Shown here: positions 30,160 to 52,019 of the stretch, piece after piece | Layout of the letters: each line of letters begins with the position of its first letter | How positions within the stretch are numbered: position 1 is the first letter of the stretch | From: a virus | Reading direction: 5' to 3' (one strand) | DNA: 63,067 nt | IMG/VR virus record: IMGVR_UViG_3300017963_000288 | Coordinates: 1-63,067 of that record | Translations under genes and position numbers: made by a program | Notes under the pieces: model-generated | The model's database searches: none | The model's input: the letters and a program-made list of their open reading frames with translations, nothing else | Told to the model about the DNA's origin: nothing

Positions 30160-30900
30160 ATGCAATGGGCCACAGGACTGACGACTGCCCCCCGTGGTAC
30201 ACCGGAGTACCACGCTCGCCTCTTACTGCACACAATCAACAGCGTTCAGAAGGCCGGTTGGTATGACATCACCGTGTTCGCCGAACCGGAAAGTTGTGTA
30301 TCTACTTTGCCGGACGGCGTTGCGTTACACCAGAACACCAAACGCCTTGGGTCATGGCCGAACTTCCTGCATGCGCTCGCAATACTCCAATCGGATTCGC
30401 CGAGTGCTGACTTGTATGTAATCTTTCAAGACGACATCTGGGTCGCCAAAGGATGTCGCGAATGGCTAGATCGCGAACTCAAGGTTGGTCATCCATCACG
30501 ATTGGCCGAAACGAACGATTACATCCTGAGCCTCTACACATCGCATGCAACGCGATTGCCGTCGTTGGTGGGCTGGTTCGCCGCAACGGGGCGATATCGT
30601 GACCCAGTGGCTCGTGAACTCCTGGACCCGAATTGGTTTGGCGTCGGGGCTTGTGCGATTGCTTTGCCGCGTGCGAGGGTAATTGATCTTCTTCGCAACC
30701 CACCAGGGCTTGGCTGTTTGACGAAAACCGATTATCACCTATCTGAGTTTTGCATCGACAACGACGTGTTGTGGCTCCAGCACTTGCCGTCACTCGTGTC
30801 TCACAGAGGCAAGGTATCCACATTGGGTCAAAAATGGTCATTGGCGAGGCAAGAGCGGGCATGGATTTCCGACTTGACAATTAGCGAGGGTGAGCGATAA
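30160..30900 (+). CDS. GT-A glycosyltransferase (Q-D-D type)
   Basis: 246 residues. First gene of the glycan island. Strand-loop pattern RLLLHTINSVQKAGW, GSWPNFLHAL and the metal-binding QDD (90-92, VIFQDDIW) match small GT-A enzymes found in phages and planctomycetes. A conserved late histidine region (LVSHRGK) follows. Donor sugar unknown. GGAGG eight bases before the ATG; a 110-bp gap after it has a weak hairpin (gaagga / tccttc, 30939-30957) and no gene. Confidence 0.8.
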   Translation: MQWATGLTTAPRGTPEYHARLLLHTINSVQKAGWYDITVFAEPESCVSTLPDGVALHQNTKRLGSWPNFLHALAILQSDSPSADLYVIFQDDIWVAKGCREWLDRELKVGHPSRLAETNDYILSLYTSHATRLPSLVGWFAATGRYRDPVARELLDPNWFGVGACAIALPRARVIDLLRNPPGLGCLTKTDYHLSEFCIDNDVLWLQHLPSLVSHRGKVSTLGQKWSLARQERAWISDLTISEGER

Positions 30901-31010
30901 TACCCCCCGGTTGTCCTGCCCCAATTGATCCATCGTGAAGGAACCAGTCTCCTTCCTGCCGCGCACGAATAACGGAGGTTCACACTTGACCTCGCCAGCG
31001 GAATGAAACC

Positions 31011-31682
31011 ATGCCCACCGCGAGTGCTATCATCCTGTCATACGCTCGGGTGAACAACCTGTCGTCGATCCTCGACTCGTTGCTCATCCTGCCGTTCCTG
31101 GACGATATCGTCGTCTGGCACAATGGCCCTCGCCGATTAACGCTCGCTGACATTGGTGTGGTGGATTCCGCATCACGAGTCGTGCTTGTGAATTGCCAAG
31201 AGAACAAATATACCTGGGGGAGATTCTGTGCCTGCCAGATTGTGAAACATCGGGCTGTCCTGACACAGGATGACGACGTACTCGTTAAGAATTGGCCCGA
31301 TATTTTCGCGGCATGGAAACCGGAATCGGTGGCCGCCGCATTGCGGATCGGCCATTTGCGACAAGATTCGAGGTATCACTGGGGGCAATCACATGAAGTT
31401 CTGTTGGGTTGGGGCTCGGTCTTTGACAGCCGTATGGTGTCGGCTATATTTCAATCATATATAGATCACTACGGGCGTGACCACGTACTGTACCGCAAGG
31501 CGGATCGACTGTTCACAATCCTACACAACCGCCCCCATTCCATATTGAAGGCGAATTTCGTCGAACTGGAAGGCGCGAACGACGTAGCCGTCGCATTGTA
31601 TGCCCGTGACGATCACGAACGGCTTACTCATATTGCAAGGCGTCGTGCGCTGGCGTTATTGGGGATAACGTATGCAGACTGA
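31011..31682 (+). CDS. GT-A glycosyltransferase, tandem paralogue 1
   Basis: 223 residues. Nucleotide-binding SAIILSYARVNNLSSIL, metal site QDDD (86-89), acceptor-side YHWGQSHEVLLGWGSVF, and GANDVAVALYARDDH at the end. Paralogous to the next gene, with which it overlaps by 11 bases; the two likely act on related steps of one glycan. Confidence 0.83.
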   Translation: MPTASAIILSYARVNNLSSILDSLLILPFLDDIVVWHNGPRRLTLADIGVVDSASRVVLVNCQENKYTWGRFCACQIVKHRAVLTQDDDVLVKNWPDIFAAWKPESVAAALRIGHLRQDSRYHWGQSHEVLLGWGSVFDSRMVSAIFQSYIDHYGRDHVLYRKADRLFTILHNRPHSILKANFVELEGANDVAVALYARDDHERLTHIARRRALALLGITYAD

Positions 31683-32328
31683 CCCGAAGGCTTCCGCCGT
31701 CTTGTTGTCGTTTGATCGCTTATGCAATCTGCGTGAGATTGTTGATTCATTGCTCGCACAACCGTTCGTCGGCGAAGTTGTCGTTTGGAATAACAACCCC
31801 AACGAAAACTTGTCATGGCTCATCGCCGACCGCGTGAGCGTATGGTCTGCCGGTTATAACCTGTATACATGGGCACGGTTCGTTGCGGCAATGTATTGTG
31901 CGAAGAATGATTGGATTGTAACGCAAGATGACGACTATGTGCTCGGCAATTGGGAAGACATCTGGCAGTCGCGAGATGCGTCGAGGATCGCCACCGCATT
32001 AGACACAACTCATCGGAACATCCACGACAAACAGAACCGATGGGGTCATCGCCATGAAGTTCTTTTGGGGTGGGGTTCGGTTTTTCATCGGTCGTTAATC
32101 CCGGTCGCCCTACACCCATATATTGCAACCTATGGGATCGACCAACCTTTGTTGCGTAAGGCGGATCGTATTTTTTCTATCATGCTTCGCTGCGAACATG
32201 CAATCATCCCAGCAATGGAACAGCGGCTAGTTGGGTGCGCTGGCAATATGGCATTGTACCGGCGACCGGACCACGCCAACCTAACGCGAATCGCTCGTGA
32301 CAGAGCATTGGATTTGACTGACACATGA
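31672..32328 (+). CDS. GT-A glycosyltransferase, tandem paralogue 2
   Basis: 218 residues, aligned along its length with the previous protein: SAVLLSFDRLCNLREIV, QDDD (85-88), RWGHRHEVLLGWGSVF, GNMALYRRPDH. The gap pattern shows divergence by substitution, so this is an old duplication. Confidence 0.83.
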   Translation: MQTDPKASAVLLSFDRLCNLREIVDSLLAQPFVGEVVVWNNNPNENLSWLIADRVSVWSAGYNLYTWARFVAAMYCAKNDWIVTQDDDYVLGNWEDIWQSRDASRIATALDTTHRNIHDKQNRWGHRHEVLLGWGSVFHRSLIPVALHPYIATYGIDQPLLRKADRIFSIMLRCEHAIIPAMEQRLVGCAGNMALYRRPDHANLTRIARDRALDLTDT

Positions 32329-32339
32329 AGGATCGACCT

Positions 32340-34382
32340 ATGCGATTGCTATTCGATTTTGCCGAGTTGGAGCGAGTTCGCCCTCGCGACATTGCCAAGA
32401 TCACCATGTACGCCCTTATTGCCCAAAACCTGGGTCACGAAGTATTTGTACACGACAACGGCGGCGCACTAGCGAGGATGGATCATACACGATCTATGCC
32501 GACACTTGCCGTCTCGTTGCCCACCAAATCGCTCACGCCGTGGCAGAACCAAGAGCCGGACGTGTACCTATCCACTGATGTAGGGTTGCGGGAGCGTGGA
32601 CTGATTGATCGTTCGTGGCGTAGAGACACACCGACAATTATTCTCGGACTCCGACATCAGACCAAAAAGAATGAGGAACGAATACTCGCCTGTGTGGACC
32701 TGCTCGTCACAGTCAAACATTCATTAGATCACCCACGTATATTGAGCGTCAAACATTGCGTGAGTCAGCGGGTATTGGAAACGCTAGTTGAAGACGGACT
32801 ATTCGAGGCTTATATGACGGATGACCTCGACGCGATACGTAAAGCATACCCCGCCGAGGGTGAGCGGCGGCTCGCGGGATTCATCGGCTATGACGATTAC
32901 AACCGTCGTGAGCGCATAGCCAGATTGCCACCATGGGTCGATTGTCGGTGGTTCAAAGATGACAGTGTGGCTGGCGGGTATCTTCCTACCCGTGATTATC
33001 TACGATGGTTGGCGGGGTGTAAGGCAGCCGTGGATATGCCGGGACAGCACCCAAAAACCTACCGTTTTACAGAAGCGGTGATGCTTGGCGTGCCCGTAAT
33101 TTGCGTTCCAGGAGTACAGGCATGTACGGTCCCGGTCACAATTGCCAACGCAATCACCTTGCGATTTTGGGCCGATCTGAATCGCCTCGACCGGCTAATG
33201 GGCAATTGTGAGACAATCCGGACTTGTGCGGATTACGCCTACCGTGAGGCGTGGTCGTTGAGAGCCCAAACGAGACTGATGCTAGAGTGGATTTGTCATA
33301 CCGGGACGCGAACCCCGCCCCCGCGTACCGTTCGTGGTGCAAACCTCAAAGCAGATGACTTGGACGCGGAACTCGGGCCATGTAGCGTGGACTATTCACC
33401 CGTCATGGAACCGACTGTGCGCATATCGCACGAGGCGAGATTCAAGGTGCTCGCAATCATCGACGAATACGGGTGGGCTTATCACAATCGGGCGATTGCG
33501 TTGAAGAAATACGCCCCAAAAGATTGGCTATTCACGATCCAGCCATGGCGCGACGTGCGATGGACAAAAGTTACTCGCGCATACGACTTGATTTACCTAC
33601 TCGACTATGCCCAAACTGAGACGGCACGACATCACATCACGGAGCATCATAGCAAGGTGCCTTTGGTTGTTTCCTACAACGCCGATATTCATCGCCGCCA
33701 AGATTGGTGGCCTCGCGTGTGCCATTGGGCGGATTGGGTAGTATGTGTGAATCGGCAACGATGGCTTCACCGTGGCGGCTGCAACAACTGTTGTGCGATC
33801 AGTAATGGAGTGGACCTCACGACATTTCAGCCCATGGTGCCGATAAACGAAAGGCCACACCGCATATTGTGGTGTGGCTCGATTCACGCAAGCGGTGACA
33901 AGGGACACACGGACATCCTACCCACACTAGAACGTACCGCGAACGCGGCTGGATTTATGACGGACTTTCGTTTGATCGGCAACGAGGGCGTGAAGCGTTT
34001 TTCACCAGCCGAACAAGCGGCATGGTACAATACGGGCTCGTATATCTTATGTGCGAGTGCGAGCGAGGGAACGGCAAACACGATCACGGAAGGCGTCGCA
34101 TGTGGGTGCATTGCGGTCAGTACGCCTGTTGGTAATATCGTCGAGTGGGGAAAGAGTCGCACCGATTGCGTAATCGTTCCACGCTCACCGGGCAAGTTAC
34201 AATGGGGGCTTGGTATCGCACGCGCACAACGCGATGACATGGGGCGTCGCAGCCTACACGCGATTCAACGCTGGAATTGGGAGGATAGGTCGCAGTATTA
34301 CTACGCCGTATTCAAAAAACTGATGAAAGGTGAGCCAGTTCGTCCCTTTGTATACTCCGATTGCCAACCGGGGGACATCTAA
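32340..34382 (+). CDS. two-domain glycosyltransferase (GT-B/GT-B)
   Basis: 680 residues, twice the normal length. The N-terminal half (1-350) is GT-B-like with FIGYDDYNRR and YLRWLAGCKAAVDMPGQHP, and resembles the protein at 47013-48008. The C-terminal half is GT4-like with ISNGVDLTTF, GNEGVKRFSPAEQ and the E-x7-E donor motif SEGTANTITEGVACGC. The linker near 355-385 is Pro/Arg-rich. A start at 32340 has AAGGA six bases upstream; one at 32325 overlaps the previous stop (ATGA) but lacks it. Possibly a bifunctional enzyme that adds two sugars in turn. Confidence 0.83.
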   Translation: MRLLFDFAELERVRPRDIAKITMYALIAQNLGHEVFVHDNGGALARMDHTRSMPTLAVSLPTKSLTPWQNQEPDVYLSTDVGLRERGLIDRSWRRDTPTIILGLRHQTKKNEERILACVDLLVTVKHSLDHPRILSVKHCVSQRVLETLVEDGLFEAYMTDDLDAIRKAYPAEGERRLAGFIGYDDYNRRERIARLPPWVDCRWFKDDSVAGGYLPTRDYLRWLAGCKAAVDMPGQHPKTYRFTEAVMLGVPVICVPGVQACTVPVTIANAITLRFWADLNRLDRLMGNCETIRTCADYAYREAWSLRAQTRLMLEWICHTGTRTPPPRTVRGANLKADDLDAELGPCSVDYSPVMEPTVRISHEARFKVLAIIDEYGWAYHNRAIALKKYAPKDWLFTIQPWRDVRWTKVTRAYDLIYLLDYAQTETARHHITEHHSKVPLVVSYNADIHRRQDWWPRVCHWADWVVCVNRQRWLHRGGCNNCCAISNGVDLTTFQPMVPINERPHRILWCGSIHASGDKGHTDILPTLERTANAAGFMTDFRLIGNEGVKRFSPAEQAAWYNTGSYILCASASEGTANTITEGVACGCIAVSTPVGNIVEWGKSRTDCVIVPRSPGKLQWGLGIARAQRDDMGRRSLHAIQRWNWEDRSQYYYAVFKKLMKGEPVRPFVYSDCQPGDI

Positions 34383-34993
34383 TGACTCATGCCCTTTATA
34401 TTTGGATACCCCGAAACGGCGGCACATCAATTCACACGCGAATGTCCGAAGCATCCTTTGTCCGGCTCAAGCCGTTCGGCCGCGAATACCATTACGACAA
34501 ATGTCATTTTACAATGATAGGCCACCACACATTGGAGGACGCATTGGCTGCTGGCATACTGAAACAGCAACGAGTTGTAATCGCAACAATACGCAACCCG
34601 TGGAGCCGCATGGTGTCCCTGTATCGGTATTGGCGAGGTCGTCTCGGAGGTCGACTGACATTCAAGGACTTCGTTAACCTTGCAATTGATGACCCACAAG
34701 GCACAACGCCGATCAAAGGCGTCGTGAGCGTTGGTCACGCATCTCCGCAATATGATTGGATAACGATAAACGGCGAAATTCCACGCAACCTATCGTTGAT
34801 CCGCTTTGAAATGATACAGGCAGGTTGGCACACGGTGTCGGAAGCTATCGGGATCACCTGGAAGGGGCTTAGTCGTCAAAACGCTTCTGGGGAACCAGAG
34901 GACTATCGCGTTTATTATGACGACGCAACCCTTGCTGCAATTGCGCAGCGTTATGATCGCGACATCACAATTGGAGGTTATACCTTTGAATGA
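34382..34993 (+). CDS. sulfotransferase (PAPS-dependent type)
   Basis: 203 residues. 5'-phosphosulfate loop PRNGGTS (10-16), 3'-phosphate site RNPWSRMVSLYRY (71-83), and RFEMI in the late part. This is the small carbohydrate sulfotransferase pattern. It would move sulfate from PAPS to a hydroxyl of the glycan built here. Starts in TAATG after the two-domain GT and ends overlapping a membrane protein gene. Confidence 0.85.
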   Translation: MTHALYIWIPRNGGTSIHTRMSEASFVRLKPFGREYHYDKCHFTMIGHHTLEDALAAGILKQQRVVIATIRNPWSRMVSLYRYWRGRLGGRLTFKDFVNLAIDDPQGTTPIKGVVSVGHASPQYDWITINGEIPRNLSLIRFEMIQAGWHTVSEAIGITWKGLSRQNASGEPEDYRVYYDDATLAAIAQRYDRDITIGGYTFE

Positions 34994-35342
34994 CAGGTCA
35001 TTGTTCTATCGTGCCGCCGCCGCCGCTTGTCGTGAGACGGGACGACCAACCGCTGCGGACGAACTTGCGGCGATGGCAGCTCATGCAGAATCGCCATCAC
35101 AAATGGCCCCAACAGAAGTTACGTTTGACCGCAGCTCTGGAGAATTGACGTTCTCTATATCCTGCCCTGATTGTGGCGAGGATTTTGTCGGTGCTATCAT
35201 TCTTCCCGTTCATGAGTGGCAATCGTTAATCGGCCACCCGCTTTGCACATTTTGGTACAATCATGGGCCAAAGATTTTACTCACCCTCATTCCTTGGTTT
35301 CTCTTACTCATTATGGTGATAATATGTCGACTCCTTCCTTGA
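34986..35342 (+). CDS. tail-anchored small membrane protein
   Basis: 118 residues from a TTG start fixed by GGAGG seven bases upstream and an 8-base overlap with the sulfotransferase end. N-terminal helical part, a Cys pair CPDCGEDFVG that could hold zinc, then one C-terminal membrane span (LLTLIPWFLLLIMVIICRLL). A cytoplasmic domain with a single tail anchor could place glycan enzymes at the membrane. Confidence 0.6.
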   Translation: MNDRSLFYRAAAAACRETGRPTAADELAAMAAHAESPSQMAPTEVTFDRSSGELTFSISCPDCGEDFVGAIILPVHEWQSLIGHPLCTFWYNHGPKILLTLIPWFLLLIMVIICRLLP

Positions 35343-36028
35343 AAGCCACCGATGCAGCTTGGCAACGAGAATATGATCGCCTAATGCGTGACCCATATCT
35401 CGCCAGAAAATACGACCGTGAGCGGCGGCTGCGGGAACATTTGCATTATCTCCAGCGATATGCAAAGGAAGTATTCGCCAAACCGCTCCCCAGTACACGC
35501 ATTGTCGATGTGGGGTGTGGTGCTGGGGAAACGCTTGAATGGGCTCGCGTTTTTGGATGGAACGCCGTTGGTGTCGAGGCTCCGAGTGGCGAGGGTGGCA
35601 TGGGCGAGGGTTATTGGCGGCTATCACAACTATTGCATGAGCGACAAAAACTAACCGTGCTCTATTGTGGCTGGAGAAATTACATCAAAAAGGAGTGCCA
35701 CGCGGCCGCCTTCTTCAACTTCCGTGGGTCGTGGGCACAGAGCTACGCGGACTTTCTCGACGGCCCACCACACCACGTCCACCACGATTGCCACCGTCAA
35801 GCGTGGCGATGGGGTGTTGAACTACAAGAGGCATGGCGGTTGGCGTTTGATTACATGGCATCCGTGCTGGTTCCTGGTGGGCATATCTTGATTGCCGCAA
35901 ACGACACCGGGGGTTCCACTTGTCGGGCACGATATAATAAAGAAATGCAAACCTCCGCCACCGCCGCAGGGCTGAAACTGGTGCGGGAGGAAAACAAAGG
36001 GCTATTGTTGAAATGGGTAAAGCCTTGA
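35324..36028 (+). CDS. class I SAM-dependent methyltransferase
   Basis: 234 residues. SAM motif I VDVGCGAGETLEW (about 58-70), an acidic GVEAPSG after strand 2, and a late VLVPGGHILIAAND. Target unknown; likely methylates a sugar of this island's glycan or a small precursor. Overlaps the previous gene by 19 bases. Confidence 0.83.
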   Translation: MSTPSLKATDAAWQREYDRLMRDPYLARKYDRERRLREHLHYLQRYAKEVFAKPLPSTRIVDVGCGAGETLEWARVFGWNAVGVEAPSGEGGMGEGYWRLSQLLHERQKLTVLYCGWRNYIKKECHAAAFFNFRGSWAQSYADFLDGPPHHVHHDCHRQAWRWGVELQEAWRLAFDYMASVLVPGGHILIAANDTGGSTCRARYNKEMQTSATAAGLKLVREENKGLLLKWVKP

Positions 36029-36056: not shown

Positions 36057-36638
36057 ATGGGTAAGCGATCTGAACCAGGACTTGTTGCCAATGGGCGCGG
36101 GATTTTTGTTCACAATCCACGGGCGGCCGGATCATCGCTTGCCGCCGCTCTCGGCTGTTGGGATTCGCACGACACCGCGTGGGAACTCCGCAAGCGATAT
36201 GGCTTTTCACGATGGTCTAAGGCGTTCACGTTCGGCATCGTCCGTCATCCGTGGATTCGTGCCGTTTCCTGGTTTGTCTGGAATCACGGTTGCGCGTCGC
36301 CTCGTGACTTTCGCGAGTGGGTGGCCACAGGATGTCCGGAGTCATGGAACCACTTCAATTGGACGGGGCGGCCGATCAATCCATTGTGTCAGGTTCAACA
36401 CTTCGCCGCCGAGGGGGGCATCATCGTCGATCACATTGCTCGGTTCGAGTCATTAGATGATGAAATTGAAACGATCTGCGGCGTATTAGACATCCCATTG
36501 GTCACGCTGCCCCACATCGGTGCGGCGACATCGACTGTTTGGCAAGAGTTCTACGATGACCGGAGTCGCGATGCAATTGCCAGATTGGACCGTTGGGCGA
36601 TCAAGAAGTTTGGCTACGAGTTCGAGGAACCAAGGTGA
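36057..36638 (+). CDS. sulfotransferase, second copy
   Basis: 193 residues. 5' loop NPRAAGSS (20-27), 3' site RHPWIRAVSWF (63-73), and RFESLDDEIETIC. GGAG seven bases before the ATG at 36057. Only distantly similar to the first sulfotransferase, so the two probably differ in position of transfer. Confidence 0.83.
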   Translation: MGKRSEPGLVANGRGIFVHNPRAAGSSLAAALGCWDSHDTAWELRKRYGFSRWSKAFTFGIVRHPWIRAVSWFVWNHGCASPRDFREWVATGCPESWNHFNWTGRPINPLCQVQHFAAEGGIIVDHIARFESLDDEIETICGVLDIPLVTLPHIGAATSTVWQEFYDDRSRDAIARLDRWAIKKFGYEFEEPR

Positions 36639-37390
36639 TGAAAGTATCTGTCTTGATGCCAGTATACAATCACACCGCATATCTGCGGCGAGCAATTGAG
36701 TCGATTGCGAATCAAACCTACGAGAATGTCGAACTTCTTATATGGGACGATGGCTCGACTGAGGATGTATATGGGGTAGTTCGTTCCTGTAAATCCGCCC
36801 CAATTGGTTATTGGCGCAGTAATGAGAACTTAGGATTGACGGTCTGTCTCAATAAACTGCTTGACCGTGCGACGGGTGACTTTTTTGCTCGCCAGGATTC
36901 CGATGACTGGAGCGACCCGTCGCGCATTGCAGAACAAGTTAAGTTATGGCAACCTGGAGTCGGGCTAGTTACGACTTATGCTTGGGCGGTTGATTCTCAT
37001 AACCGAAGAATGGCGAACACCTACCTTGATGACATCGCACAACCGAAACACCTGAATGACCTCCACCGGCATAACGTACTTGTGGACGCCACGGCACTTA
37101 TACCCCGTGATGTGTTTGCGAGGATCGGATATTACGACGAACGGTTATACATCGGCCAATCCTACAATTATCACATGAGGATCGCGAGGGCCGGTTATAC
37201 TATTCGCGTTGTCCCTCACGCTTTGTATTGCGTCCGTAAACACCCACTTCAAGTGCGCCACCGCAAGCGCGGCCAATTGACGCTGGACGGTGAACGGTGT
37301 AACGCTGCGTGCCGTAAATGGGCGAAAATGAATACGATCATTACGTTACCTCTACACCGACAATACCGTGCGTCTGAAAGGACCAACTGA
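36638..37390 (+). CDS. family 2 glycosyltransferase (GT2)
   Basis: 250 residues. Classic GT2: VSVLMPVYNHTAYLRRAI, WDDGSTED, then RQDSDDWS (DxDD at 87-90), and an end with YNYHMRIAR. Starts by TGATG after the sulfotransferase. Cytosolic or membrane-associated enzyme adding a sugar to a growing chain. Confidence 0.9.
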   Translation: MKVSVLMPVYNHTAYLRRAIESIANQTYENVELLIWDDGSTEDVYGVVRSCKSAPIGYWRSNENLGLTVCLNKLLDRATGDFFARQDSDDWSDPSRIAEQVKLWQPGVGLVTTYAWAVDSHNRRMANTYLDDIAQPKHLNDLHRHNVLVDATALIPRDVFARIGYYDERLYIGQSYNYHMRIARAGYTIRVVPHALYCVRKHPLQVRHRKRGQLTLDGERCNAACRKWAKMNTIITLPLHRQYRASERTN

Positions 37391-38220
37391 TGCTTACACT
37401 GATTGCGAGGTATTGGAATGAGGTCGATTGGTTGGAAGCCAGTTTACGGCAGGTCGAACTATGGAATGCGGACAAGATTTTTCTTTGTGAGGGGTGTTGG
37501 GATGCGTCCAAACCATGCCACTCGACCGACGACACACTATGGCGTCTATACGAATGGGCGGAGCACTACGAACGCCAACGGCGAGATTCATGGGGTGTTG
37601 CCATCGTCAACGTCTGCCGTGACTTCTCCAACCCGCGCCACAATCAAGCGGCCACATCCCAGTGGTGTATGGACGCAGCCCAATGTCGGCCCGGCGACTG
37701 GATCGTTATCGTGGACGCAGATTTATTCCTGCCGGAAAGCGCAATCAGAATGATGCGCCACGACATCGCAAACAACCCACCATGGGCACGGTACGAAATC
37801 TCAATTCACCATTTCTGCACACCCTCCCTGGAACGGGCACAACTTGGCGTCAATCGCCAGCCACTCGTCCCATACAAGGTTCTGCCGGGAGCGACGTGGA
37901 TTCCGACCAACCATCTGGCGTTGGACGGCAACCAATACGAATTGATACCAGATCGCGTTCCAACGCGACGGCTCCTTGACTGCTGCGCGAATGGTCTTTG
38001 CGCATGCCACTACGAGATGCAACATGATGCGAGCCGCCTGACATCGCGATATAGTATCGGCGACCGCAAAACTCCAGACGAGGCGGGACGGTTGGCTTCT
38101 ATGACTCCTTTTTCATGTACCCACCCAAAATACGTCATAAACGCCACCACGCCACTCGATCACCACCTAGCGAAGGATGTCACCAATGGGCGAACATCGC
38201 CATGCGAAGATTGTTCGTGA
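37390..38220 (+). CDS. glycosyltransferase-like protein (D-A-D motif)
   Basis: 276 residues. GT-A layout with IARYWNEVDWLEA and metal motif VDADLF (109-111); a histidine-rich region IHHFC and YEMQHD follows. Starts in TGATG. Distant from the other GT-A enzymes here. Confidence 0.78.
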   Translation: MLTLIARYWNEVDWLEASLRQVELWNADKIFLCEGCWDASKPCHSTDDTLWRLYEWAEHYERQRRDSWGVAIVNVCRDFSNPRHNQAATSQWCMDAAQCRPGDWIVIVDADLFLPESAIRMMRHDIANNPPWARYEISIHHFCTPSLERAQLGVNRQPLVPYKVLPGATWIPTNHLALDGNQYELIPDRVPTRRLLDCCANGLCACHYEMQHDASRLTSRYSIGDRKTPDEAGRLASMTPFSCTHPKYVINATTPLDHHLAKDVTNGRTSPCEDCS

Positions 38221-43663: not shown

Positions 43664-44446
43664 ATGACGATCAGTGGAACAAAAGAGTGGAGCGTCAAGA
43701 GTGTCAATTGTCATAACGGATGTAAGTACAAGTGTCGTTATTGCTACGCCCGTGCCGAAGCAATGCGATACAAGCGGATCACCAATCCGGACGAGTGGGG
43801 CAACGAGTATTGTTCGCTCCGCAGTCGTGATGTGCGACGGAGGCACCACAATTACGGGGGCACGGTCATGTTTCCAACCACGCATGACATCTGGCCGGAA
43901 ATCATAGAACCATGCCTTACGGTTATTGGCAATCTGCTCGACGCCGGTAATATGGTTTTGGTTGTTTCTAAGCCCAACCGGCAATGCGTCGAGGCTATGT
44001 GCCAGGAGTTCGACAGTTACCATAACAGTATCCTTTTTCGCTTCACAATTGGAGCGACAGACAATGACCTGTTGCGTTATTGGGAACCTAACGCTCCGAA
44101 CTTCGACGAGCGGCTTGATTGCTTGAAGTACGCGGCCTCGCTGGATTACAGGACGAGCGTGAGTGCCGAGCCGCTTCTTGATGTCGAGAATGTCGCGGCA
44201 TTGTGGGATGCGGTAGCTCCGTTCGCAACCGATTCTATCTGGATCGGCAAGATGAATCGCGTCAGGCAAAGGGTTTTGCCGGGCACGTCCGAGGAAGCGA
44301 TTGAAGCAATCGAGCGGGGGCAGACGGACGAGGCGGTGCAAGCGGTCTACGAGCAGTTTCGCGATCACCCGCTTGCAAGATGGAAGGAGAGCTACAAGGC
44401 GGTCCTTGGGCTTACGTTAGCAATCAAACCGGGGGAGGATAAATAA
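43664..44446 (+). CDS. radical SAM enzyme (spore-photolyase-like group)
   Basis: 260 residues. C20-x3-C24-x2-C27 (GCKYKCRYCYAR), then an SPL-like GNLLDAGNMVLVVSKPNR and the paired IGAT strand. The last 55 residues (from GTSEEAIEA) are repeated in the chimeric gene at 44996-45205. Substrate unknown; it may act on a sugar, a nucleotide or DNA. Confidence 0.85.
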   Translation: MTISGTKEWSVKSVNCHNGCKYKCRYCYARAEAMRYKRITNPDEWGNEYCSLRSRDVRRRHHNYGGTVMFPTTHDIWPEIIEPCLTVIGNLLDAGNMVLVVSKPNRQCVEAMCQEFDSYHNSILFRFTIGATDNDLLRYWEPNAPNFDERLDCLKYAASLDYRTSVSAEPLLDVENVAALWDAVAPFATDSIWIGKMNRVRQRVLPGTSEEAIEAIERGQTDEAVQAVYEQFRDHPLARWKESYKAVLGLTLAIKPGEDK

Positions 44447-45484: not shown

Positions 45485-46153
45485 ATGCCACAACAACCGA
45501 GTATTTTTCTTATGGGTTGCGTGAATGGAGGCACGTCAATCATCGCCAAACTATATCAGACTCTCGGTTGGCACTACAACGAGAGTCACGAACACCACCG
45601 CAAGTTCATGGAAGTCGAGGCGGCGAATATCGCTACTGTTCGTCTTCGTAACGAAATGGACGGGTTGCCACGACGCCCCCCATCTCCAGCGGCGGCGATC
45701 AAACTCTTTGCCGAGTGGTTCGCATCTACAAACCACCCGACCATCTGCAAGGATCATCGTTTTTCGTTTTGTATGGATCGACTCTCGCGAAGCATCCTAG
45801 ACACCGAACCGAACGCAGCGCTCGTGTGGCTAAAAAAGGACATTACTAGTATTGCGGCGTCGATCCGTCGTCGACGAGGTGATAAGGGCTGGTGGTGGAA
45901 CCGCAGCCCAGAAAAATGGATCGCGGCGGCGGCGGAACAATATCAGCTATGGCCCGGCCAGAAATGGGTTGTGCAATACGAGAGCGTGCGTTCAACCATC
46001 GGGAAACAACCAAGGGATTTTCTACTAGAACTAGGGATTGAACTCTGGGTTGATCCCACACTACAATGCGTCCTTGACGCACAATCGCTATTCGACGTAA
46101 CTCGTGGCAAAAAAGGCAACCCACATCAGGGAAAAGACGGATGGCAGTATTGA
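45485..46153 (+). CDS. sulfotransferase-family protein, third copy
   Basis: 222 residues. N-terminal loop MGCVNGGTS (10-18) replaces the usual 5'-phosphosulfate site, and KDITSIAASI replaces the Arg of the 3' site by Lys. DHRFSF and an LW-rich end follow. This is the parent whose start was copied into the chimera. Either a divergent sulfotransferase or a kinase-like P-loop relative. GGAGGG before the ATG. Confidence 0.7.
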   Translation: MPQQPSIFLMGCVNGGTSIIAKLYQTLGWHYNESHEHHRKFMEVEAANIATVRLRNEMDGLPRRPPSPAAAIKLFAEWFASTNHPTICKDHRFSFCMDRLSRSILDTEPNAALVWLKKDITSIAASIRRRRGDKGWWWNRSPEKWIAAAAEQYQLWPGQKWVVQYESVRSTIGKQPRDFLLELGIELWVDPTLQCVLDAQSLFDVTRGKKGNPHQGKDGWQY

Positions 46154-46833
46154 GTCCATACGAAGTGGCAGCCAAATGGGTTGACCTCTTTCGTGAGAGA
46201 ACGTCAGACATCATGCCACAACACAGTGGTATCCTTCCGAGTGAAATGCTACTCTTTGTTTCACAGTGTCTTGAGCGCGGCGTGCCACACGTTATTGAGT
46301 CAGGGCGGCTGCGAGGTTATAGCACAGAAGTTCTAGCGAAATTCAAGGATTTCTGGCATGTCACCAGCATCGAAAAGCGGCCGGATCGCCCAACCGATCA
46401 ACGCCTAGCGGCAAGATACAAACACGTCATGCTCTTATGTGGCGACGGCGTTCGTCTTGTGCGGGATTCCTTGACGTCACACCCTCGTTCCGGCATTTTG
46501 CTCGACGGTCCAAAGGGACTTGCCGGGCTCAAGCTGTTTTGGAATATCCGCAGGAACGCAACTGTCGTTGGGATTCACGACTTGTACCCACAAGGGACGC
46601 TGGACGACGACATGCGGATGATCTTGGCAATCTGCGGCGTCCGGGTGGCAGGTGGCAATCTCGCTCGCATTCTCGCAAACCAAATACCGGGAGCATACTT
46701 CTCGGATGCCCTGGTATTTGTGCGGGAGTTCGGTGACCTGGACGCCACAACGCTCACCCATATCGGCCATACGCACAAAACACTCTTGCCTTGTTCTTCC
46801 GTCTTGGGTATGTTTGACGGCCGAGTAAGATAA
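46141..46833 (+). CDS. methyltransferase-fold protein, paralogue of the 38746 gene
   Basis: 230 residues. VIESGRLRGYSTEVL and GILLDGPKGLAGLKLFW are the nucleotide-binding and metal-site strands; VGIHDLYPQG follows. Missing the usual E/D of motif I, so it may be inactive or bind another nucleotide. Overlaps the sulfotransferase by 13 bases. Confidence 0.68.
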   Translation: MAVLSPYEVAAKWVDLFRERTSDIMPQHSGILPSEMLLFVSQCLERGVPHVIESGRLRGYSTEVLAKFKDFWHVTSIEKRPDRPTDQRLAARYKHVMLLCGDGVRLVRDSLTSHPRSGILLDGPKGLAGLKLFWNIRRNATVVGIHDLYPQGTLDDDMRMILAICGVRVAGGNLARILANQIPGAYFSDALVFVREFGDLDATTLTHIGHTHKTLLPCSSVLGMFDGRVR

Positions 46834-46852: not shown

Positions 46853-47134
46853 ATGCCGAGCTATACATTTGACGTCAAAGGGACTAAACATACAGTCCAC
46901 GGCAACCGGGCACAAATCAACAGCGTCAAAGCCCTTGTTGCCGACCGTGATTCTCTGCAACGGAAACTCACGCAATCAGCGAGGGTCCGGATACCACCAA
47001 AGGGTTCATGTGATGAAATTAGCAATCAACCTCAAGATATTTCGGGGGGGGTATCCGCGACAACGAAAGACGAGGCGACTGGTTTACCTCGCCGCCATCG
47101 CCAAGCGGATGGGCCACGACGTTCGGATACATAG
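46853..47134 (+). CDS. hypothetical small protein, overlapping the next gene
   Basis: 93 residues. The first 45 (SYTFDVKGTKHTVHGNRAQI) look natural; the last 40 are shadow-like and overlap the next gene by 122 bases in another frame. GGAGGA eight bases before the ATG. The real C-terminus may have been lost by a frameshift. Confidence 0.5.
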   Translation: MPSYTFDVKGTKHTVHGNRAQINSVKALVADRDSLQRKLTQSARVRIPPKGSCDEISNQPQDISGGVSATTKDEATGLPRRHRQADGPRRSDT

Positions 47135-48008
47135 CCCGAACGGACATTCACGATATGATTTTTCCTCGCTGATTGATGGTATCCCTATTGATCGGGGTAA
47201 AGTGGCCGTCCAACCGGACGTGTATTTCTGTTCGCACCCAACATTGCTCAAGCATTATGGGCAAGTGCCAAAGGGATGCAAGATCGTCGCATGGAAAGAG
47301 ACGCTGCGGATATTGGACGATAAAGTATTGGCGGAGCGTGCCGACCTGATTGTTGGTTACGTCTGGCAACCGAAGGATTGGACTTTCCGCAACGTCAGAG
47401 TATCACCAAACCATCTATCTGAAGTCCAGCACAAGTATCTTCAAGTTCCGTGGCTTTGCCACGACCGCGTGCTTGACACGATCCACAAGGCCAAACTGAC
47501 GCCCGCATATCTCGACGATGACCTGGAGCCAATACGGGCGAAATGGGGATCAACAGAAAAGAAACGCAAGGTTGGGTTCATCGGCCAGTTGATCCCCCAT
47601 CGCAGCCGAGTTATGGCGAAGGTAGAGGCGGCTTTCGGTTGTGAAATCAAACAATGGGCCGGGGGTCATCATCCGTCCCTGCCGCCCGGTCAATATCTCC
47701 GCTGGCTGACCGAGTGTGACTTGAATCTCAACCTAGAGGGTGACACGTGGGGCTGCTCCCGATTGTCTGAATGTGCCATGATGGGGGCGGCGTTCGTTCA
47801 GTGCCGCCCAGAACGCCTCGCCTACGCCCCACCAATCTCGTCCGAGAATGCCATCCTCTGCCGTGATTGGACGGAAAGGGATATAATACTCGCCGGGATC
47901 GAACGTGCGTCAGACGTTGCGGAGGGGGCGACCAGAGCATATCTGGAGGGTTGGTCGCTCCGTGGACAGATTCTCCAGGTTTTCCACCGTTTAGGGGGGG
48001 GCGTATAA
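47013..48008 (+). CDS. glycosyltransferase, GT-B type
   Basis: 331 residues. Weakly related to the N-terminal half of the 680-residue protein at 32340: VGFIGQLIPHRSRV and YLRWLTECDLNLNLEG pair with FIGYDDYNRR and YLRWLAGCKAAVDM. Late RLSECAMMGAAFVQCRP is the donor-site region. AAAGGG before the ATG at 47013. Confidence 0.78.
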   Translation: MKLAINLKIFRGGYPRQRKTRRLVYLAAIAKRMGHDVRIHSPNGHSRYDFSSLIDGIPIDRGKVAVQPDVYFCSHPTLLKHYGQVPKGCKIVAWKETLRILDDKVLAERADLIVGYVWQPKDWTFRNVRVSPNHLSEVQHKYLQVPWLCHDRVLDTIHKAKLTPAYLDDDLEPIRAKWGSTEKKRKVGFIGQLIPHRSRVMAKVEAAFGCEIKQWAGGHHPSLPPGQYLRWLTECDLNLNLEGDTWGCSRLSECAMMGAAFVQCRPERLAYAPPISSENAILCRDWTERDIILAGIERASDVAEGATRAYLEGWSLRGQILQVFHRLGGGV

Positions 48009-49012
48009 TGCCGGTTATTCGCGTCGTTTTCGACGTACCGAAGTGGACTTGGCACCACCGAGCGATGGACCTCGCCACCTTCGCGCCCCCAGAGTACACG
48101 GTCCATACGCACAAGGAATCAACGTTCTTGAATCACTTGAAGGACCCGGGTTTCGTATCTGGTGTCGATGCTGTGTTTTTCATGGGTTGGGCCAGTTGTC
48201 CGATCCAACGCATCAGAAAAGCGGGCTGCAAGCGGCTCGTATCTTTAGTGACTTCGGCCGGACCCGCTTACCGCGCCGTGAACGATGGAGATTGGAACAC
48301 CTGGATCGTCACGGGCAGTCGCAATTACGCAAACGCCCACACAAAACTCCCACGATACGATGCTATAATTGTCGTCAATCGCTTCCTTGCCGATGCCTGC
48401 CGAAATCACACAACGCGACCAATTTATTTGATCCCAAGTGGCGTGAATACTGATGCGTATTCGCCATCGCCAAGCGGTCGCGAACAGCACAATGGCTTTC
48501 GCGTCGGCTGGTGCGCCAACATCAACGGCACACACACCGTCAAAGGATACAAGGAAATACTCGAACCACTAATTGCGGAAACGCCGGAATGGAAGTGGTG
48601 CGTCAATACGCGGAACCATCGTCGCGCATGGACGCGAGAACAAATGGTAGACTGGTATCGCACATTGGACGCCTTTGTGTGTACGTCGATTTGTGAAGGG
48701 ACGCCCTCGCCGGTTTTTGAAGCTGCATCCTGTGGTGTGCCGATAGTCTCAACAGACGTTGGGTGCGTGAGGGATTGGCAATTGCCCCATGACCTACACT
48801 TGATTGCGCCCGCCTATCAGAACGCAAAACAAGCGGGCGTCTCCCGCGAACACCTACGAGCGTCCCTGTCCGCCATTGCAAACATGCCACCCGCCGAGCG
48901 AACGCTGTTGGGATTCGAGTTGCGTTCGAGCGTCTGTAAACTGTTTGACTACCGCGTTATATCCCCGCGCACAATGGAGGCGTTATGTCAGACAAACGGA
49001 AGCGAGCGTTGA
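48008..49012 (+). CDS. GT4-like glycosyltransferase, tandem copy 1 of 3
   Basis: 334 residues. Donor motif CEGTPSPVFEAASCGVPIV (E-x7-E), preceded by VGWCANINGTHTVKGYKEIL and KWCVNTRNHRRAW. Starts in TAATG. The three tandem enzymes share WYR-x-x-D-x-F, EG-x-P, EAA-x-CG and STD-[VI]-G. Confidence 0.88.
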   Translation: MPVIRVVFDVPKWTWHHRAMDLATFAPPEYTVHTHKESTFLNHLKDPGFVSGVDAVFFMGWASCPIQRIRKAGCKRLVSLVTSAGPAYRAVNDGDWNTWIVTGSRNYANAHTKLPRYDAIIVVNRFLADACRNHTTRPIYLIPSGVNTDAYSPSPSGREQHNGFRVGWCANINGTHTVKGYKEILEPLIAETPEWKWCVNTRNHRRAWTREQMVDWYRTLDAFVCTSICEGTPSPVFEAASCGVPIVSTDVGCVRDWQLPHDLHLIAPAYQNAKQAGVSREHLRASLSAIANMPPAERTLLGFELRSSVCKLFDYRVISPRTMEALCQTNGSER

Positions 49013-49995
49013 TCCTGTATGATGTTCCCGGTTGGGCACAGCATCGTTTCGCGTGTGGTATTCGCTCACATGCGCCGGACTGGTGCGAAGTTGACGTCGG
49101 CATCGCTGGTGAATATCTCAACGGTGGCATCGACGCGGACCGTATCGCACAATATGACGGTGTCCTTGCTCCATTATTCGCAATGTATCGGCGTTCGGGA
49201 GTGCGGCGACTCGTCGGTTTGTTAGCCAGCCACGCGTTGATGTTCTCGCGATATGACAAAGACGATTGGCGAACACTCGGCGTCACAAAGGACCGCCATC
49301 GCCGGCACGCCGCGAATGTACTACAAAACGTCGACGGGGCAATCGCCAGAAATCGCGAGTTGCGATTCTCATTGTCGGAATATCACGACCATATCGTAAC
49401 GATCCCTGTCGGTGTTGACCTTTCGGTTTTCAATAACACCGGCCGTCATTATAGCAAATCGGGGGAGCCTTTGCGTATTGGGTGGTGCGGTAATAAGGCA
49501 TGCAAGTTAGATCGAAACTTCAAGGGGTACGAGCGAATCCTCCAGCCGCTAATGCGCAGGACGGGAGGGCGTTACGAATGGCATGTGAACACCAACTCCC
49601 ATAAAGAGGCGATCCCACCAGAGGGAATGGCGAAATGGTATCGGGCGTGTGATGTGTTCATCACGACGGCATCGGCAGAGGGGACGCCAAACCCGGCCTA
49701 CGAGGCGGCCGCTTGTGGCTGTTGCGTTATCTCAACGGACGTCGGTGGCATTACAGACTGGGTTGCCATGCGATCACTCGCACAGATCGTCCCGACGTAC
49801 CGAAATAAAGAGGAAGCGGCCGTTACGATCCGTGCGTTTGAACAATTACTGCATGGCTTTGACAAGAAGCGTGAACTTGTCGAACAAGCGGGGGGTATAC
49901 TTGCTCATGATGTTGGTCGGCGATATTCTTATCGCGTTCTCGCCCCCGGTATACTCCAGTTTGTCACACTGCACGAAGGCAAGCAGCGACCGTGA
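48985..49995 (+). CDS. GT4-like glycosyltransferase, tandem copy 2 of 3
   Basis: 336 residues. WCGNKACKLDRNFKGYERIL, WHVNTNSHKEAIPPEGMAKW, then AEGTPNPAYEAAACGC. GGAGG directly before GCGTT and the ATG. N-terminus VPGWAQHRFACGIRSHAPDW matches copy 3, so copies 2 and 3 are the closer pair. Confidence 0.88.
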   Translation: MSDKRKRALILYDVPGWAQHRFACGIRSHAPDWCEVDVGIAGEYLNGGIDADRIAQYDGVLAPLFAMYRRSGVRRLVGLLASHALMFSRYDKDDWRTLGVTKDRHRRHAANVLQNVDGAIARNRELRFSLSEYHDHIVTIPVGVDLSVFNNTGRHYSKSGEPLRIGWCGNKACKLDRNFKGYERILQPLMRRTGGRYEWHVNTNSHKEAIPPEGMAKWYRACDVFITTASAEGTPNPAYEAAACGCCVISTDVGGITDWVAMRSLAQIVPTYRNKEEAAVTIRAFEQLLHGFDKKRELVEQAGGILAHDVGRRYSYRVLAPGILQFVTLHEGKQRP

Positions 49996-51011
49996 AAGTC
50001 CTGTTGATTTACGACCTCGACGGATGGGCTTTCCACCATATCGCATGTGGGCTACAAAGCTATGCGCCGGATTGGGTTGACGTTACCATCGCGTCGCACG
50101 AAGAATACTATGCCGACATCAGGGAACACAAACCGCGGGTGACAGCCTACGACGCTATACTTGCGATTTCACTCTGTACGGCACGCCCACGACTCCCTAA
50201 ACCGATCTGGATTGGGTTCGCCTGCCATTGCGGATTCAGTTATGACACGGAAACGCTCTACGATTTCCGGACCCTTGGCGTCAATCCTCGTCGATGCCGC
50301 AAAGCGGCATGGGCTTATGTGACGAATGAAGTGGACTGGATTTTCGCATGCAATTCACAAGTCGCAAACGCCTTTCGTGCATATGCTCCGCAGCGGGTAT
50401 CACTCCTGCCGCAGGGCATAGACACTGATTTGTTTACGCCCCGCCGCTGGCGCGAGCCTAAAACGGTACTTACAGCCGGGTGGTGTGGACAACCGGCACC
50501 GTGCAAGGGTCGCTCTCAAGTTTTGCGACCCCTGATAACCGCCCTCGGCCCCTCGTGGCGATGGCGGATCAATTCGAGAACGCATGGCACGGCTCTTAGT
50601 CCAGCGGAAATGGTAAAATGGTATCGCAATCTGGACTTGTTCGTCTGTACTAGCACGAGTGAAGGTGGCCCACTAACTCCGTTCGAGGCTGCGTCGTGTG
50701 GCGTCCCGGTCTTGTCAACGGACATCGGTAGCGTTCGTGATTGGAATCTCATCCACGATGTCGGCCTCATTCTGCCGGAATACAAGAACCACCGTGACGC
50801 AAAACGTGTCGTCACACTGGCGGTCGGCATCATGAACCATTGGCGACCAACCAGAGAATTATCTGAAACATTCCGGACGGACATCGTAGAATCGCGGTCA
50901 TGGAAAACCTTAGCTGCGCGATGGTTCGACGAAATAAAGAACGTCGTGGAACGTAAGCCGACGCTTCCTTGTGGGTTTGCCAAGGAATTGCGACGATTGA
51001 AAGTCAAATAA
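49992..51011 (+). CDS. GT4-like glycosyltransferase, tandem copy 3 of 3
   Basis: 339 residues from a GTG start (GTGA overlap). WCGQPAPCKGRSQVLRPL, EMVKWYRNLDLFV, SEGGPLTPFEAASCGVPVL. The start LIYDLDGWAFHHIACGLQSY aligns with copy 2. Confidence 0.88.
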   Translation: MKVLLIYDLDGWAFHHIACGLQSYAPDWVDVTIASHEEYYADIREHKPRVTAYDAILAISLCTARPRLPKPIWIGFACHCGFSYDTETLYDFRTLGVNPRRCRKAAWAYVTNEVDWIFACNSQVANAFRAYAPQRVSLLPQGIDTDLFTPRRWREPKTVLTAGWCGQPAPCKGRSQVLRPLITALGPSWRWRINSRTHGTALSPAEMVKWYRNLDLFVCTSTSEGGPLTPFEAASCGVPVLSTDIGSVRDWNLIHDVGLILPEYKNHRDAKRVVTLAVGIMNHWRPTRELSETFRTDIVESRSWKTLAARWFDEIKNVVERKPTLPCGFAKELRRLKVK

Positions 51012-51050
51012 ATAGCAACTGCGGTAAATGTCTTCACGAAAGGGTTGATG

Positions 51051-52019
51051 ATGAATCTTTTGGTGCTTTTCCCGCGTCAATTATGGACGCGAAAGCAGAG
51101 TCCAGTTCGCCGCCATGCGATTCTCGCTCTACAAAGGCACGACGATACAACCGTCAAGATCAGTGGGCAGGGGTGGCCCGACTGGCGGCATGACATCGAC
51201 GGGGGCTCGGTTGCGATGATCGAGCAACTGATGCCGGATGCCGATGCTGTTTTCTGGTACAAGCCGCTCGGGACCAGAGGAATCCCACCGCTGGATGATT
51301 CGCGAGCCGTAAGGGATCGGTGGTTGACGGTGGAATCCTTCAACGAGTGCTGGTGGCCGGACAATCGGGCAGAGCGTGAAGCGACGGAAGCGGGCACGTC
51401 GCTGGTGATCTGCCACCACGCAAACGACAAGCCGCAGTTTCGGACCTTACCGACGGTTCACATTCCGCATTGCGCCGAAAAGTCGATCTTCGCCAGGGCC
51501 GCGAAGCCTTGGAAGAAACGCGACATTGACGTTCTGCTTTGCGGAGTTCAGAGCCCAAGCATCTACCCACTTCGGGCTCGATGGTTGGAATTGTACCGCG
51601 CAAACAAACTGCCGGGACACGCAGTCCATTATGAGCGGCCGCCATACCGCGCGAAAGACCTCAATAAGTGCGACGAGTTGGTAGCCGAATACGCAACCAT
51701 GCTCGGCCGATCTAAGATTATCCTCGGTTGCACGTCGCGCTACAAATATCCGCTTGCGAGGTTTCCAGAAGCAGCGATGGCGGGTGCCGTCCATGTCAGC
51801 GATACGCCGGAGCAGGCCCCGGTTGGATACGATAAGATGATCTGCCCGGTCGATCCAGCCATGCCGGAAGCGATGCTCATCGAGACGGTGGTCGCGGCCC
51901 TGGATCAAGCCGCCTCGATGCAACCACAAGAGGTCGCAATGGAGTTGTTTACGCAGGAATGTTACGCGAGCCGTTTCCTCGGAGCAATAGATCGGTCACT
52001 CGCACAAGGGCCGCGATGA
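51051..52019 (+). CDS. glycosyltransferase-like protein
   Basis: 322 residues. The C-terminal third has the conserved GT-B pattern FPEAAMAGAVHVSDTPEQAPVG preceded by a strand LLCGVQSPSIYPLR. Likely the last glycosyltransferase of the island. AAAGGG lies six bases before the ATG at 51051. Confidence 0.75.
   Translation: MNLLVLFPRQLWTRKQSPVRRHAILALQRHDDTTVKISGQGWPDWRHDIDGGSVAMIEQLMPDADAVFWYKPLGTRGIPPLDDSRAVRDRWLTVESFNECWWPDNRAEREATEAGTSLVICHHANDKPQFRTLPTVHIPHCAEKSIFARAAKPWKKRDIDVLLCGVQSPSIYPLRARWLELYRANKLPGHAVHYERPPYRAKDLNKCDELVAEYATMLGRSKIILGCTSRYKYPLARFPEAAMAGAVHVSDTPEQAPVGYDKMICPVDPAMPEAMLIETVVAALDQAASMQPQEVAMELFTQECYASRFLGAIDRSLAQGPR

What the first reader, a model, noticed from the sequence alone, without database searches (positions are those of the whole stretch)
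30160..52019. 22-kb glycan island with sulfotransferases and radical SAM enzymes
About twelve glycosyltransferase genes, three sulfotransferases (34382, 36057, 45485), five methyltransferase-fold genes, two radical SAM enzymes and one tail-anchored protein are coupled in one rightward run, fed by two epimerases elsewhere in the window. No Wzx-type flippase, Wzy polymerase or ligase is visible. The pathway therefore most likely ends on a cytoplasmic target: virion protein, phage DNA, or a lipid carrier. Sulfation plus methylation of a phage-made glycan would be new to my knowledge.
Basis: partly seen in the sequence, partly recalled or inferred. Interest (0 to 1): 0.8.

Follow-up and report, generated by a model that had tools for sequence, protein, structure and literature searches.

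The report
Phage-encoded sulfated-glycan assembly island
An uncultivated tailed phage, probably infecting Planctomycetota, carries a 22-kb block of sugar-linking, sulfating and methylating genes that recurs beside the tail genes of distant relatives with a fixed backbone and swapped extra genes; it most likely decorates the phage particle, although the target is unproven.

Summary
The island is real: a nearly gap-free rightward run (20 of 26 junctions at most 25 nt) with about twelve glycosyltransferases, three sulfotransferases (one over Pfam's cut-off, one weaker family match, one by predicted fold only), five methyltransferases and a B12-type radical SAM protein related to the sugar enzyme AprD4. 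A primase-like gene (40691) and the second radical SAM gene (43664) look like passengers. New here: related islands occur in seven other IMG/VR lineages, beside the tail module wherever the contig shows both. Backbone order is kept with G013 and G015 (tau 0.91, 0.93) but not with G002; about half of each island is unique cargo. Between lineages the island is inverted as a block relative to the tail. Seven genes shared with the closest relative are intact and conserved. No flippase, polymerase or other multi-span protein was seen, even in a near-complete 93-kb relative. No thymidylate-synthase homologue was found; the TET test was inconclusive. Tail genes point to Planctomycetota hosts. Best reading: a cytosolic, cassette-built, sulfated and methylated glycan placed on a virion protein, working like a flagellin glycosylation island. 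The acceptor is inferred, not shown. Solitary phage sulfotransferases are already known.

The parts
30160..30900 (+). backbone gene, putative GT-A glycosyltransferase; tail-side end gene of the island in G013, G015, G002
   Evidence: no Pfam hit; homologues 31-33% in G013, G015, G002, G813; invariant QDD in 4 of 4 aligned
31011..31682 (+). glycosyltransferase GT64/GT2-like, tandem copy 1
   Evidence: PF09258 2.2e-5 over cut-off; homologues 45-48% in G013, G015
31672..32328 (+). glycosyltransferase, tandem copy 2
   Evidence: 44% identical to 31011; PF00535 0.0023 below cut-off
32325..34382 (+). fusion of two GT-B-like glycosyltransferase halves
   Evidence: PF13692 7.6e-6, 0.3 bits below cut-off; N-half aligns with 47013, C-half with 48008/48985/49992
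34382..34993 (+). sulfotransferase
   Evidence: phrog_3347 2.1e-6, PF03567 0.023 below cut-off; 32% homologue in G015
34917..35342 (+). tail-anchored protein, the only island protein with a clear membrane segment; found in no other island
   Evidence: hydropathy 2.61 at residue 119; 1 of 7 islands
35324..36028 (+). backbone SAM methyltransferase
   Evidence: PF13489 9.5e-7 over cut-off; homologues 40-51% in 4 relatives
36057..36638 (+). sulfotransferase
   Evidence: PF03567 5.7e-5 over cut-off, phrog_3347 2.4e-10; homologues in G013, G015, G002
36638..37390 (+). glycosyltransferase GT2, cargo
   Evidence: PF00535 1.4e-24; 1 of 7 islands
37390..38220 (+). possible glycosyltransferase, cargo
   Evidence: PF13704 0.04 only; no solved relative
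38177..38773 (+). SAM methyltransferase
   Evidence: PF13578 1.8e-12
38746..39477 (+). O-methyltransferase-like, paralogue of 46141
   Evidence: profile A10 matches solved O-methyltransferases 8.6e-4; alignment
39474..40676 (+). B12-binding radical SAM enzyme
   Evidence: PF04055 5.8e-14 over cut-off, PF02310 just below; best solved relative AprD4 6fd2 2e-13
40691..41566 (+). primase-like gene, probable passenger
   Evidence: phrog_239 1.1e-6; homologues outside islands in G013 and G011
41989..42846 (+). SAM methyltransferase, cargo
   Evidence: PF08241 9.7e-16
42843..43661 (+). possible GT8-like glycosyltransferase, cargo
   Evidence: no Pfam hit; glycogenin E 1.2
43664..44446 (+). radical SAM protein, probable passenger
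   Evidence: PF04055 8.7e-7; 54% homologue outside the island in G002
45485..46153 (+). sulfotransferase-fold protein
   Evidence: model best matches tyrosylprotein sulfotransferases, Z 11.2; homologues 61% in G001, 36% in G015
46141..46833 (+). O-methyltransferase-like
   Evidence: profile A10; 47% homologue in G001
47013..48008 (+). backbone GT-B glycosyltransferase
   Evidence: model matches GT-B enzymes, best 6.1e-8; 6 of 7 islands
48008..49012 (+). backbone GT4 glycosyltransferase
   Evidence: PF13692 6e-9; 7 of 7 islands
48985..49995 (+). GT4 glycosyltransferase
   Evidence: PF00534 5e-11
49992..51011 (+). GT4 glycosyltransferase; the junction before it is where G001 carries a radical SAM cassette
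   Evidence: PF00534 1.9e-11
51048..52019 (+). backbone glycosyltransferase, end gene of the island
   Evidence: PF13524 8.9e-4 below cut-off; 73% in G001, 41% in G013 whose copy passes
53446..62272 (-). tail module next to the island, including tape measure 55266-57491
   Evidence: tape measure by tblastn; same module beside islands in relatives
263..1165 (-). NAD-dependent epimerase/dehydratase, possible sugar supplier
   Evidence: PF01370 9.5e-37
1165..2571 (-). GT4 glycosyltransferase outside the island
   Evidence: PF00534 2.4e-11
17152..18036 (+). NAD-dependent epimerase/dehydratase, possible sugar supplier
   Evidence: PF01370 6.8e-56

Best explanation
The island is a phage-encoded, cytosolic glycan-assembly locus. 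A fixed backbone of glycosyltransferases (30160, 31011, 32325, 47013, 48008, 51048) and one methyltransferase (35324) builds a chain; sulfotransferases, further methyltransferases and a B12 radical SAM enzyme, much of it swapped between relatives as cassettes, finish it. Sulfate donor (PAPS) and most nucleotide sugars come from the host. The finished or growing glycan is most likely attached in the cytosol to a virion protein, with the neighbouring tail proteins as first candidates. Cassette turnover would change the surface chemistry of the particle between otherwise similar phages, as flagellin glycosylation islands and O-antigen loci do for bacteria. SHOWN by sequence: enzyme families, backbone order in two relatives, cassette turnover, conservation, lack of membrane export genes, neighbourhood to the tail genes. 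INFERRED: that the product is one glycan, that it is sulfated, and that a virion protein is the acceptor.
For: Family and fold assignments. Island beside the tail module in G000, G001, G002, G013, G015/G011, and the first island gene also at the cut end of L067. Backbone order kept: 10 reciprocal best hits with G013, tau 0.91; 8 with G015, tau 0.93. Cargo without a window-island match: 16 of 28 genes in G013, 10 of 18 in G015, 17 of 27 in G002. G013 and G015 cargo is sugar chemistry too: GDP-mannose 4,6-dehydratase 1.5e-101, DegT aminotransferase 9.4e-71, PIG-L deacetylase 1.4e-15, Sulfotransfer_3 6e-8, FkbM methyltransferase. Seven genes shared with G001 intact, second-position change 0.14-0.37 against third-position 0.49-0.68; dN/dS about 0.12 and 0.16 in the two genes where dS could be estimated. 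No protein with 4 or more membrane segments in G013, G011, G002, G015. No APS kinase in 9 of 9 records, so PAPS must come from the host (control rang in 12 of 14).
Against: No acceptor protein or initiating transferase was identified. Orientation to the tail genes is not constant: co-directional in G013, G015 and G011, convergent in the window and G001, mixed in G002, so late co-expression with the tail is not a general rule; in the window the run follows the replication genes. Order is not kept with G002 (8 pairs, tau 0.21, p 0.55). G013 and G015 carry a DNA N6/N4-methylase and, in G013, a helicase inside the island. G013 and G015 resemble each other (71-79% in shared backbone genes), so their colinearity is not two independent tests.
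Confidence: 0.5

Rival explanations
1. The enzymes decorate a host envelope polysaccharide or a lipid-linked precursor on the cytosolic face, changing the host surface to block competing phages or hide the infected cell.
For: O-antigen-like backbone plus cassette architecture; GDP-sugar genes in G013; one tail-anchored protein in the window; distant tail-gene relatives sit in a planctomycete chromosome, so some of the wider lineage may be temperate.
Against: No flippase, polymerase, phosphoglycosyltransferase or multi-span protein in four records, one near-complete; the tail-anchored gene is in 1 of 7 islands; no integrase was seen among the families assigned to the window, but not every gene was scanned.
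Confidence: 0.2
2. The island builds a hypermodified DNA base: a base is hydroxylated, then glycosylated, sulfated and methylated.
For: Iyer 2013 is cited in print for glycosyltransferase- and sulfotransferase-based DNA modification in phages (passage in PMC10829341; the paper itself not held). DNA methylase and helicase in G013's island; primase-like gene inside the window's island. The one isolate phage matching a relative's sulfotransferase, DLP_6, has it among replication genes.
Against: No thymidylate-synthase homologue in 10 of 10 records (control rang in 9 of 14). The methylase/helicase pair is in 1 of 7 islands by tblastn, though G015 holds a differently related methylase-like gene (by eye). 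Twelve glycosyltransferases are many for a base. The TET/JBP search is inconclusive.
Confidence: 0.15
3. The run is a chance accumulation of mobile auxiliary genes with no single product.
For: Two passengers inside the run; about half of the genes lack a match in each relative; no order kept with G002.
Against: Backbone present in every island whose contig covers that part, order kept with two relatives, purifying selection, cargo of one biochemical theme.
Confidence: 0.1

Closest known systems
Mycobacteriophage virion glycosylation genes (three tandem glycosyltransferases after an O-methyltransferase; Freeman et al. 2023)
   Same: Phage-encoded cytosolic glycosyltransferases with a methyltransferase; the enzymes are reported to modify capsid and tail tube proteins (passage in PMC11600133; the primary paper was not held).
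   Different: Here about twelve transferases, three sulfotransferases, a radical SAM enzyme, cassette turnover; acceptor unknown; no sequence match of 49992, 34382 or 31011 in 50,697 phage records.
Bacterial flagellin glycosylation islands
   Same: Variable sets of glycosyltransferase, methyltransferase and sugar-synthesis genes beside the gene of the surface filament; such islands are in print (search listing and abstract starts only, e.g. PMC5109656, PMC7874193).
   Different: Phage-borne, beside tail genes; sulfotransferases present; no flagellin or known flagellin transferase looked for or found.
Solitary phage sulfotransferases (phrog_3347; OM43 phages; Stenotrophomonas phage DLP_6)
   Same: Same enzyme class; 36057 and 34382 match phrog_3347.
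   Different: Elsewhere read as single auxiliary genes of unclear function (PMC10580990 passage); DLP_6 has its copy alone among replication genes; here three in one glycan locus.
Phage DNA hypermodification loci (T-even type, TET/JBP type)
   Same: Glycosyltransferases with further tailoring enzymes.
   Different: No thymidylate-synthase homologue; TET not settled.

Membership tests
PAPS sulfotransferase (36057) | family profile over curated cut-off | tested here: met
   PF03567 23.8 bits against cut-off 22; phrog_3347 2.4e-10
PAPS sulfotransferase (34382) | family profile over curated cut-off | tested here: not met
   PF03567 15.3 bits against 22, though phrog_3347 2.1e-6 and PAPS-site-like motifs by eye (motifs recalled)
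PAPS sulfotransferase (45485) | sulfotransferase fold | tested here: inconclusive
   best matches are tyrosylprotein sulfotransferases, Z 11.2, rmsd 4.4 over 188 residues, kinases up to 9.5; model pLDDT 72 from 3 sequences
phage virion glycosylation locus | glycan on virion protein | not testable with these tools
   no sample or mass spectra
phage virion glycosylation locus | soluble glycosyltransferases without export machinery | tested here: met
   no multi-span proteins in four records; crude hydropathy scan with one positive control
phage virion glycosylation locus | neighbourhood to structural genes, kept in relatives | tested here: met
   G000, G001, G002, G013, G015/G011; orientation varies
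DNA hypermodification locus | thymidylate-synthase-like hydroxymethylase | tested here: not met
   0 of 10 records, control rang in 9 of 14; most records are fragments, G013 near-complete
DNA hypermodification locus | TET/JBP dioxygenase | tested here: inconclusive
   0 of 10 records, but no control rang; 1 weak hit under cut-off in 294 Planctomycetota genomes
O-antigen / serotype-conversion locus | flippase, polymerase or lipid-carrier membrane enzymes | tested here: not met
flagellin-type glycosylation island | dedicated flagellin transferase or flagellin acceptor | not tested
   analogy of layout only

The most novel reading that the evidence does not exclude
A lineage of phages, probably of Planctomycetota, coats its particles with a large, sulfated and methylated glycan assembled by a tail-linked island whose cassettes are exchanged like those of O-antigen loci: a phage surface serotype system, with sulfated virion glycans not described before in the papers I could search.
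Probability: 0.3. Interest if true: 0.85.

Novelty: new variant of a known kind. Interest (0 to 1): 0.62.

Why it matters
If the glycan is on the particle, phages would have surface serotypes set by exchangeable gene cassettes, with negative charge from sulfate, affecting adsorption, environmental sorption and recognition. It would give a function to phage sulfotransferases, which a 2023 paper calls unclear (PMC10580990 passage). It also links a phage lineage to Planctomycetota, and it makes a clear test possible because the backbone is defined.

Tried and rejected
Sulfotransfer_1 (PF00685) search of the window: no match. Megablast of the island against phage records: no match. tblastn of 49992, 34382 and 31011 against phage records: no match; one G015 sulfotransferase matched a single isolate, DLP_6, one G013 sulfotransferase none. 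Single-protein scans of IMG/VR with 36033 and 8360 found no relative; alignment-based scans did. Solved structures by sequence: the 36057/34382 profile gave only heparan sulfate 2-O-sulfotransferase at E 0.42-0.48, the 45485 profile nothing. Promoter and terminator scans of 34000-53600 were at chance level (18 against 16.0 expected; 17 against 20.0), so operon structure rests on gene spacing only.

The host assignment was tested with a control: tail profile A7 in 4 of 392 genomes of the Planctomycetota centre's phylum and in 1 of 398 of the phylum of a Gammaproteobacteria-labelled MAG, so the signal is not exclusive. Island transferases (profile A1) in nine host-type genomes gave only short, weak domain matches, 7 of 9, so the islands have no evident chromosomal source there.

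The second radical SAM gene as part of the pathway: set aside, because its homologue in G002 lies outside the island. A fold or family that was not listed is not excluded.

Counts exclude duplicates: G011 overlaps G015, G007 resembles G006, L012 and L064 belong with G013, L060-L062 with G001, L058-L059 with the window. NCBIfam was asked about 9 window proteins and 1 of G013; not all non-island genes were scanned by any library.
Full report
OBSERVATION. The window is a complete IMG/VR virus record of 63,067 bases, a linear fragment, without tRNA genes. The run 30160-52019 on the + strand is 97% coding, with 20 of 26 junctions at most 25 nt and 15 overlaps. Three of the twelve glycosyltransferases rest on weak or no evidence; one of three sulfotransferases rests on a predicted fold. 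The B12 radical SAM protein 39474 has the apramycin enzyme AprD4 as best solved relative (2e-13) and HpnJ and AprD4 as best NCBIfam models, far below their cut-offs, so it may act on a sugar, but its reaction is unknown.

EXPANSION WITHIN THE ISLAND. 31011 and 31672 are tandem copies, 44% identical. The three GT4 genes 48008, 48985 and 49992 are 32% identical to each other's reference and to the C-half of 32325 (25%); the N-half of 32325 aligns with 47013 (29%). The island thus grew partly by duplication.

RELATIVES. Alignment-based scans of IMG/VR found related islands and related tail modules. The tail proteins of the closest relative, G001, are 66-85% identical to the window's and its right island half 46-74%. 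More distant are G013, G015/G011 (tape measure 52-54%), G002 (42%), and the island fragments of G812 and G813. L006/L007 (G006/G007) hold a tail-gene homologue (33%), two GT4 genes and a sulfotransferase match. G013 is near-complete: contig L064 runs from its last genes straight into its first.

ISLAND SYNTENY. In G013, G015 and G011 tail genes are followed on the same strand by homologues of 30160, 31011 and the C-half of 32325, and in G013 and G015 by 35324 and sulfotransferase homologues; in G013 by 47013, 48008 and 51048 homologues and then replication genes on the other strand. In the window the order reads replication, 30160 to 51048, then tail on the other strand. So the block is inverted relative to the tail. 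Reciprocal best hits are collinear with G013 (10, tau 0.91, p 3e-5) and G015 (8, tau 0.93, p 4e-4), not with G002 (8, tau 0.21, p 0.55). G013 and G015 are related to each other, so the two tests are not independent.

BACKBONE AND CARGO. Of seven islands compared, homologues of 48008, 48985, 49992 and 32325 occur in 7, of 47013 and 51048 in 6, of 30160, 31011 and 35324 in 5, of 36057 in 4. G001 and G812 begin inside the island and G015 ends inside it, so some absences are only missing sequence. Genes without a window-island match: 16 of 28 (G013), 10 of 18 (G015), 17 of 27 (G002). They include a GDP-mannose 4,6-dehydratase, a DegT aminotransferase, a PIG-L deacetylase, another sulfotransferase and an FkbM methyltransferase. 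Between the homologues of 48985 and 49992, G001 carries a 3.3-kb block with a B12 radical SAM gene and a gene related to a glycosyltransferase-like ORF; its three genes have G013 matches (39-50%) and the window has an overlap junction there. This is a cassette difference between close relatives.

SELECTION. All seven island genes shared with G001 are free of stops; third codon positions differ 1.7 to 3.5 times as often as second ones; dN/dS is about 0.12 (47013) and 0.16 (51048), the two where dS could be estimated.

SULFOTRANSFERASE SPREAD. phrog_3347 matches 6 of 16 records including the window and 1 of 5 further records, weakly (G812); PF03567 matches 5 of 16. G001, without a match to either, carries a 61% homologue of 45485. 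All 9 records searched lack APS kinase, so PAPS would come from the host.

TARGET. A hydropathy scan found no protein with four or more membrane segments in G013 (93 predicted proteins), G011 (36), G002 (65) and G015 (32); a permease control gave 10. In the window only the tape measure reaches four windows and only 34917 has a clear anchor in the island. This speaks against a lipid-linked export pathway of the phage's own. Thymidylate-synthase homologues are absent in 10 of 10 records. TET/JBP is unsettled. Adjacency to tail genes in several lineages then makes a virion protein the likeliest acceptor, by analogy with mycobacteriophages, where glycosyltransferases beside an O-methyltransferase are reported to modify capsid and tail tube (passage in PMC11600133; primary paper not held). 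The opposite orientation in the window, next to replication genes, is the main fact against late co-expression.

HOST. The tape-measure profile found 12 loci in prokaryote genomes, 6 titled as Planctomycetota, Gemmatales, Phycisphaerales or Planctomycetaceae, the others labelled Vicinamibacteraceae (3, one isolate), Gammaproteobacteria, Bacillota and unnamed bacterium. Tail profile A7 matched 4 of 392 genomes of the Phycisphaerales centre's phylum, one inside a 4.81-Mb contig (G191), against 1 of 398 in a control phylum. Around it lies a compact phage-like cluster, about 496.6-509.4 kb, with homologues of tail genes (28-30%) and of the window's ParB-like gene (43%), flanked by ordinary chromosomal genes. 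No island lies there. Planctomycetota is therefore likely, not proven.

LITERATURE. Ten paper searches in a CC-licensed library found no description of a phage island combining sulfotransferases with many glycosyltransferases; six exact phrases for phage sulfotransferases gave nothing. Passages read: PMC10580990 (two OM43 phage genomes with a sulfotransferase, function unclear), PMC8290583 (sulfotransferase as a previously reported auxiliary gene), PMC11600133, PMC13313380, PMC10434257, PMC10829341. Most subscription papers are not in that library.

VERDICT. A real, conserved and modular phage glycan island with sulfotransferases; a new variant of phage glycosylation loci. Virion protein is the likeliest target at about one in two.

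Noticed in passing
L036:1668-4820 (G013 77668-80823): One 1051-residue protein joins a prohead serine protease domain (PF04586) and an AAA ATPase domain (PF00004), an unusual pairing next to the capsid gene.
   Followed up: no
L032:9298-10242 (G013), - strand: A protein with a prepilin-type N-terminal motif (PF07963) sits between tail module and island on the opposite strand.
   Followed up: partly
G191:C1 about 496600-509430 (L093-L094): Compact phage-like head-tail cluster in a 4.81-Mb planctomycete contig; might be a prophage remnant or a gene-transfer-agent-like element.
   Followed up: partly
window 44447-44710 and 45205-45468: Two 87-residue ORFs look like diverged copies of each other with the same end (...SLxSRRPxxxN), by eye.
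   Followed up: no
window 8357-9895: AAA ATPase found in one isolate phage, Tunturiibacter phage Tunturi_3, 32% over 97%; homologue 46% in G013.
   Followed up: no
window 43664-44446 and L041:16481-17281: Radical SAM protein with weak likeness to radical SAM mobile pair protein B (4.2e-5); in G002 it lies near a ParB-like gene.
   Followed up: partly
L033:2212-2844 (G013 21212-21844): A further sulfotransferase type (Sulfotransfer_3, 6e-8) in a relative's island.
   Followed up: partly
L004, L005: Other large phage contigs pair GT4 genes with an epimerase homologue, so sugar genes may be clustered in further phage groups.
   Followed up: no
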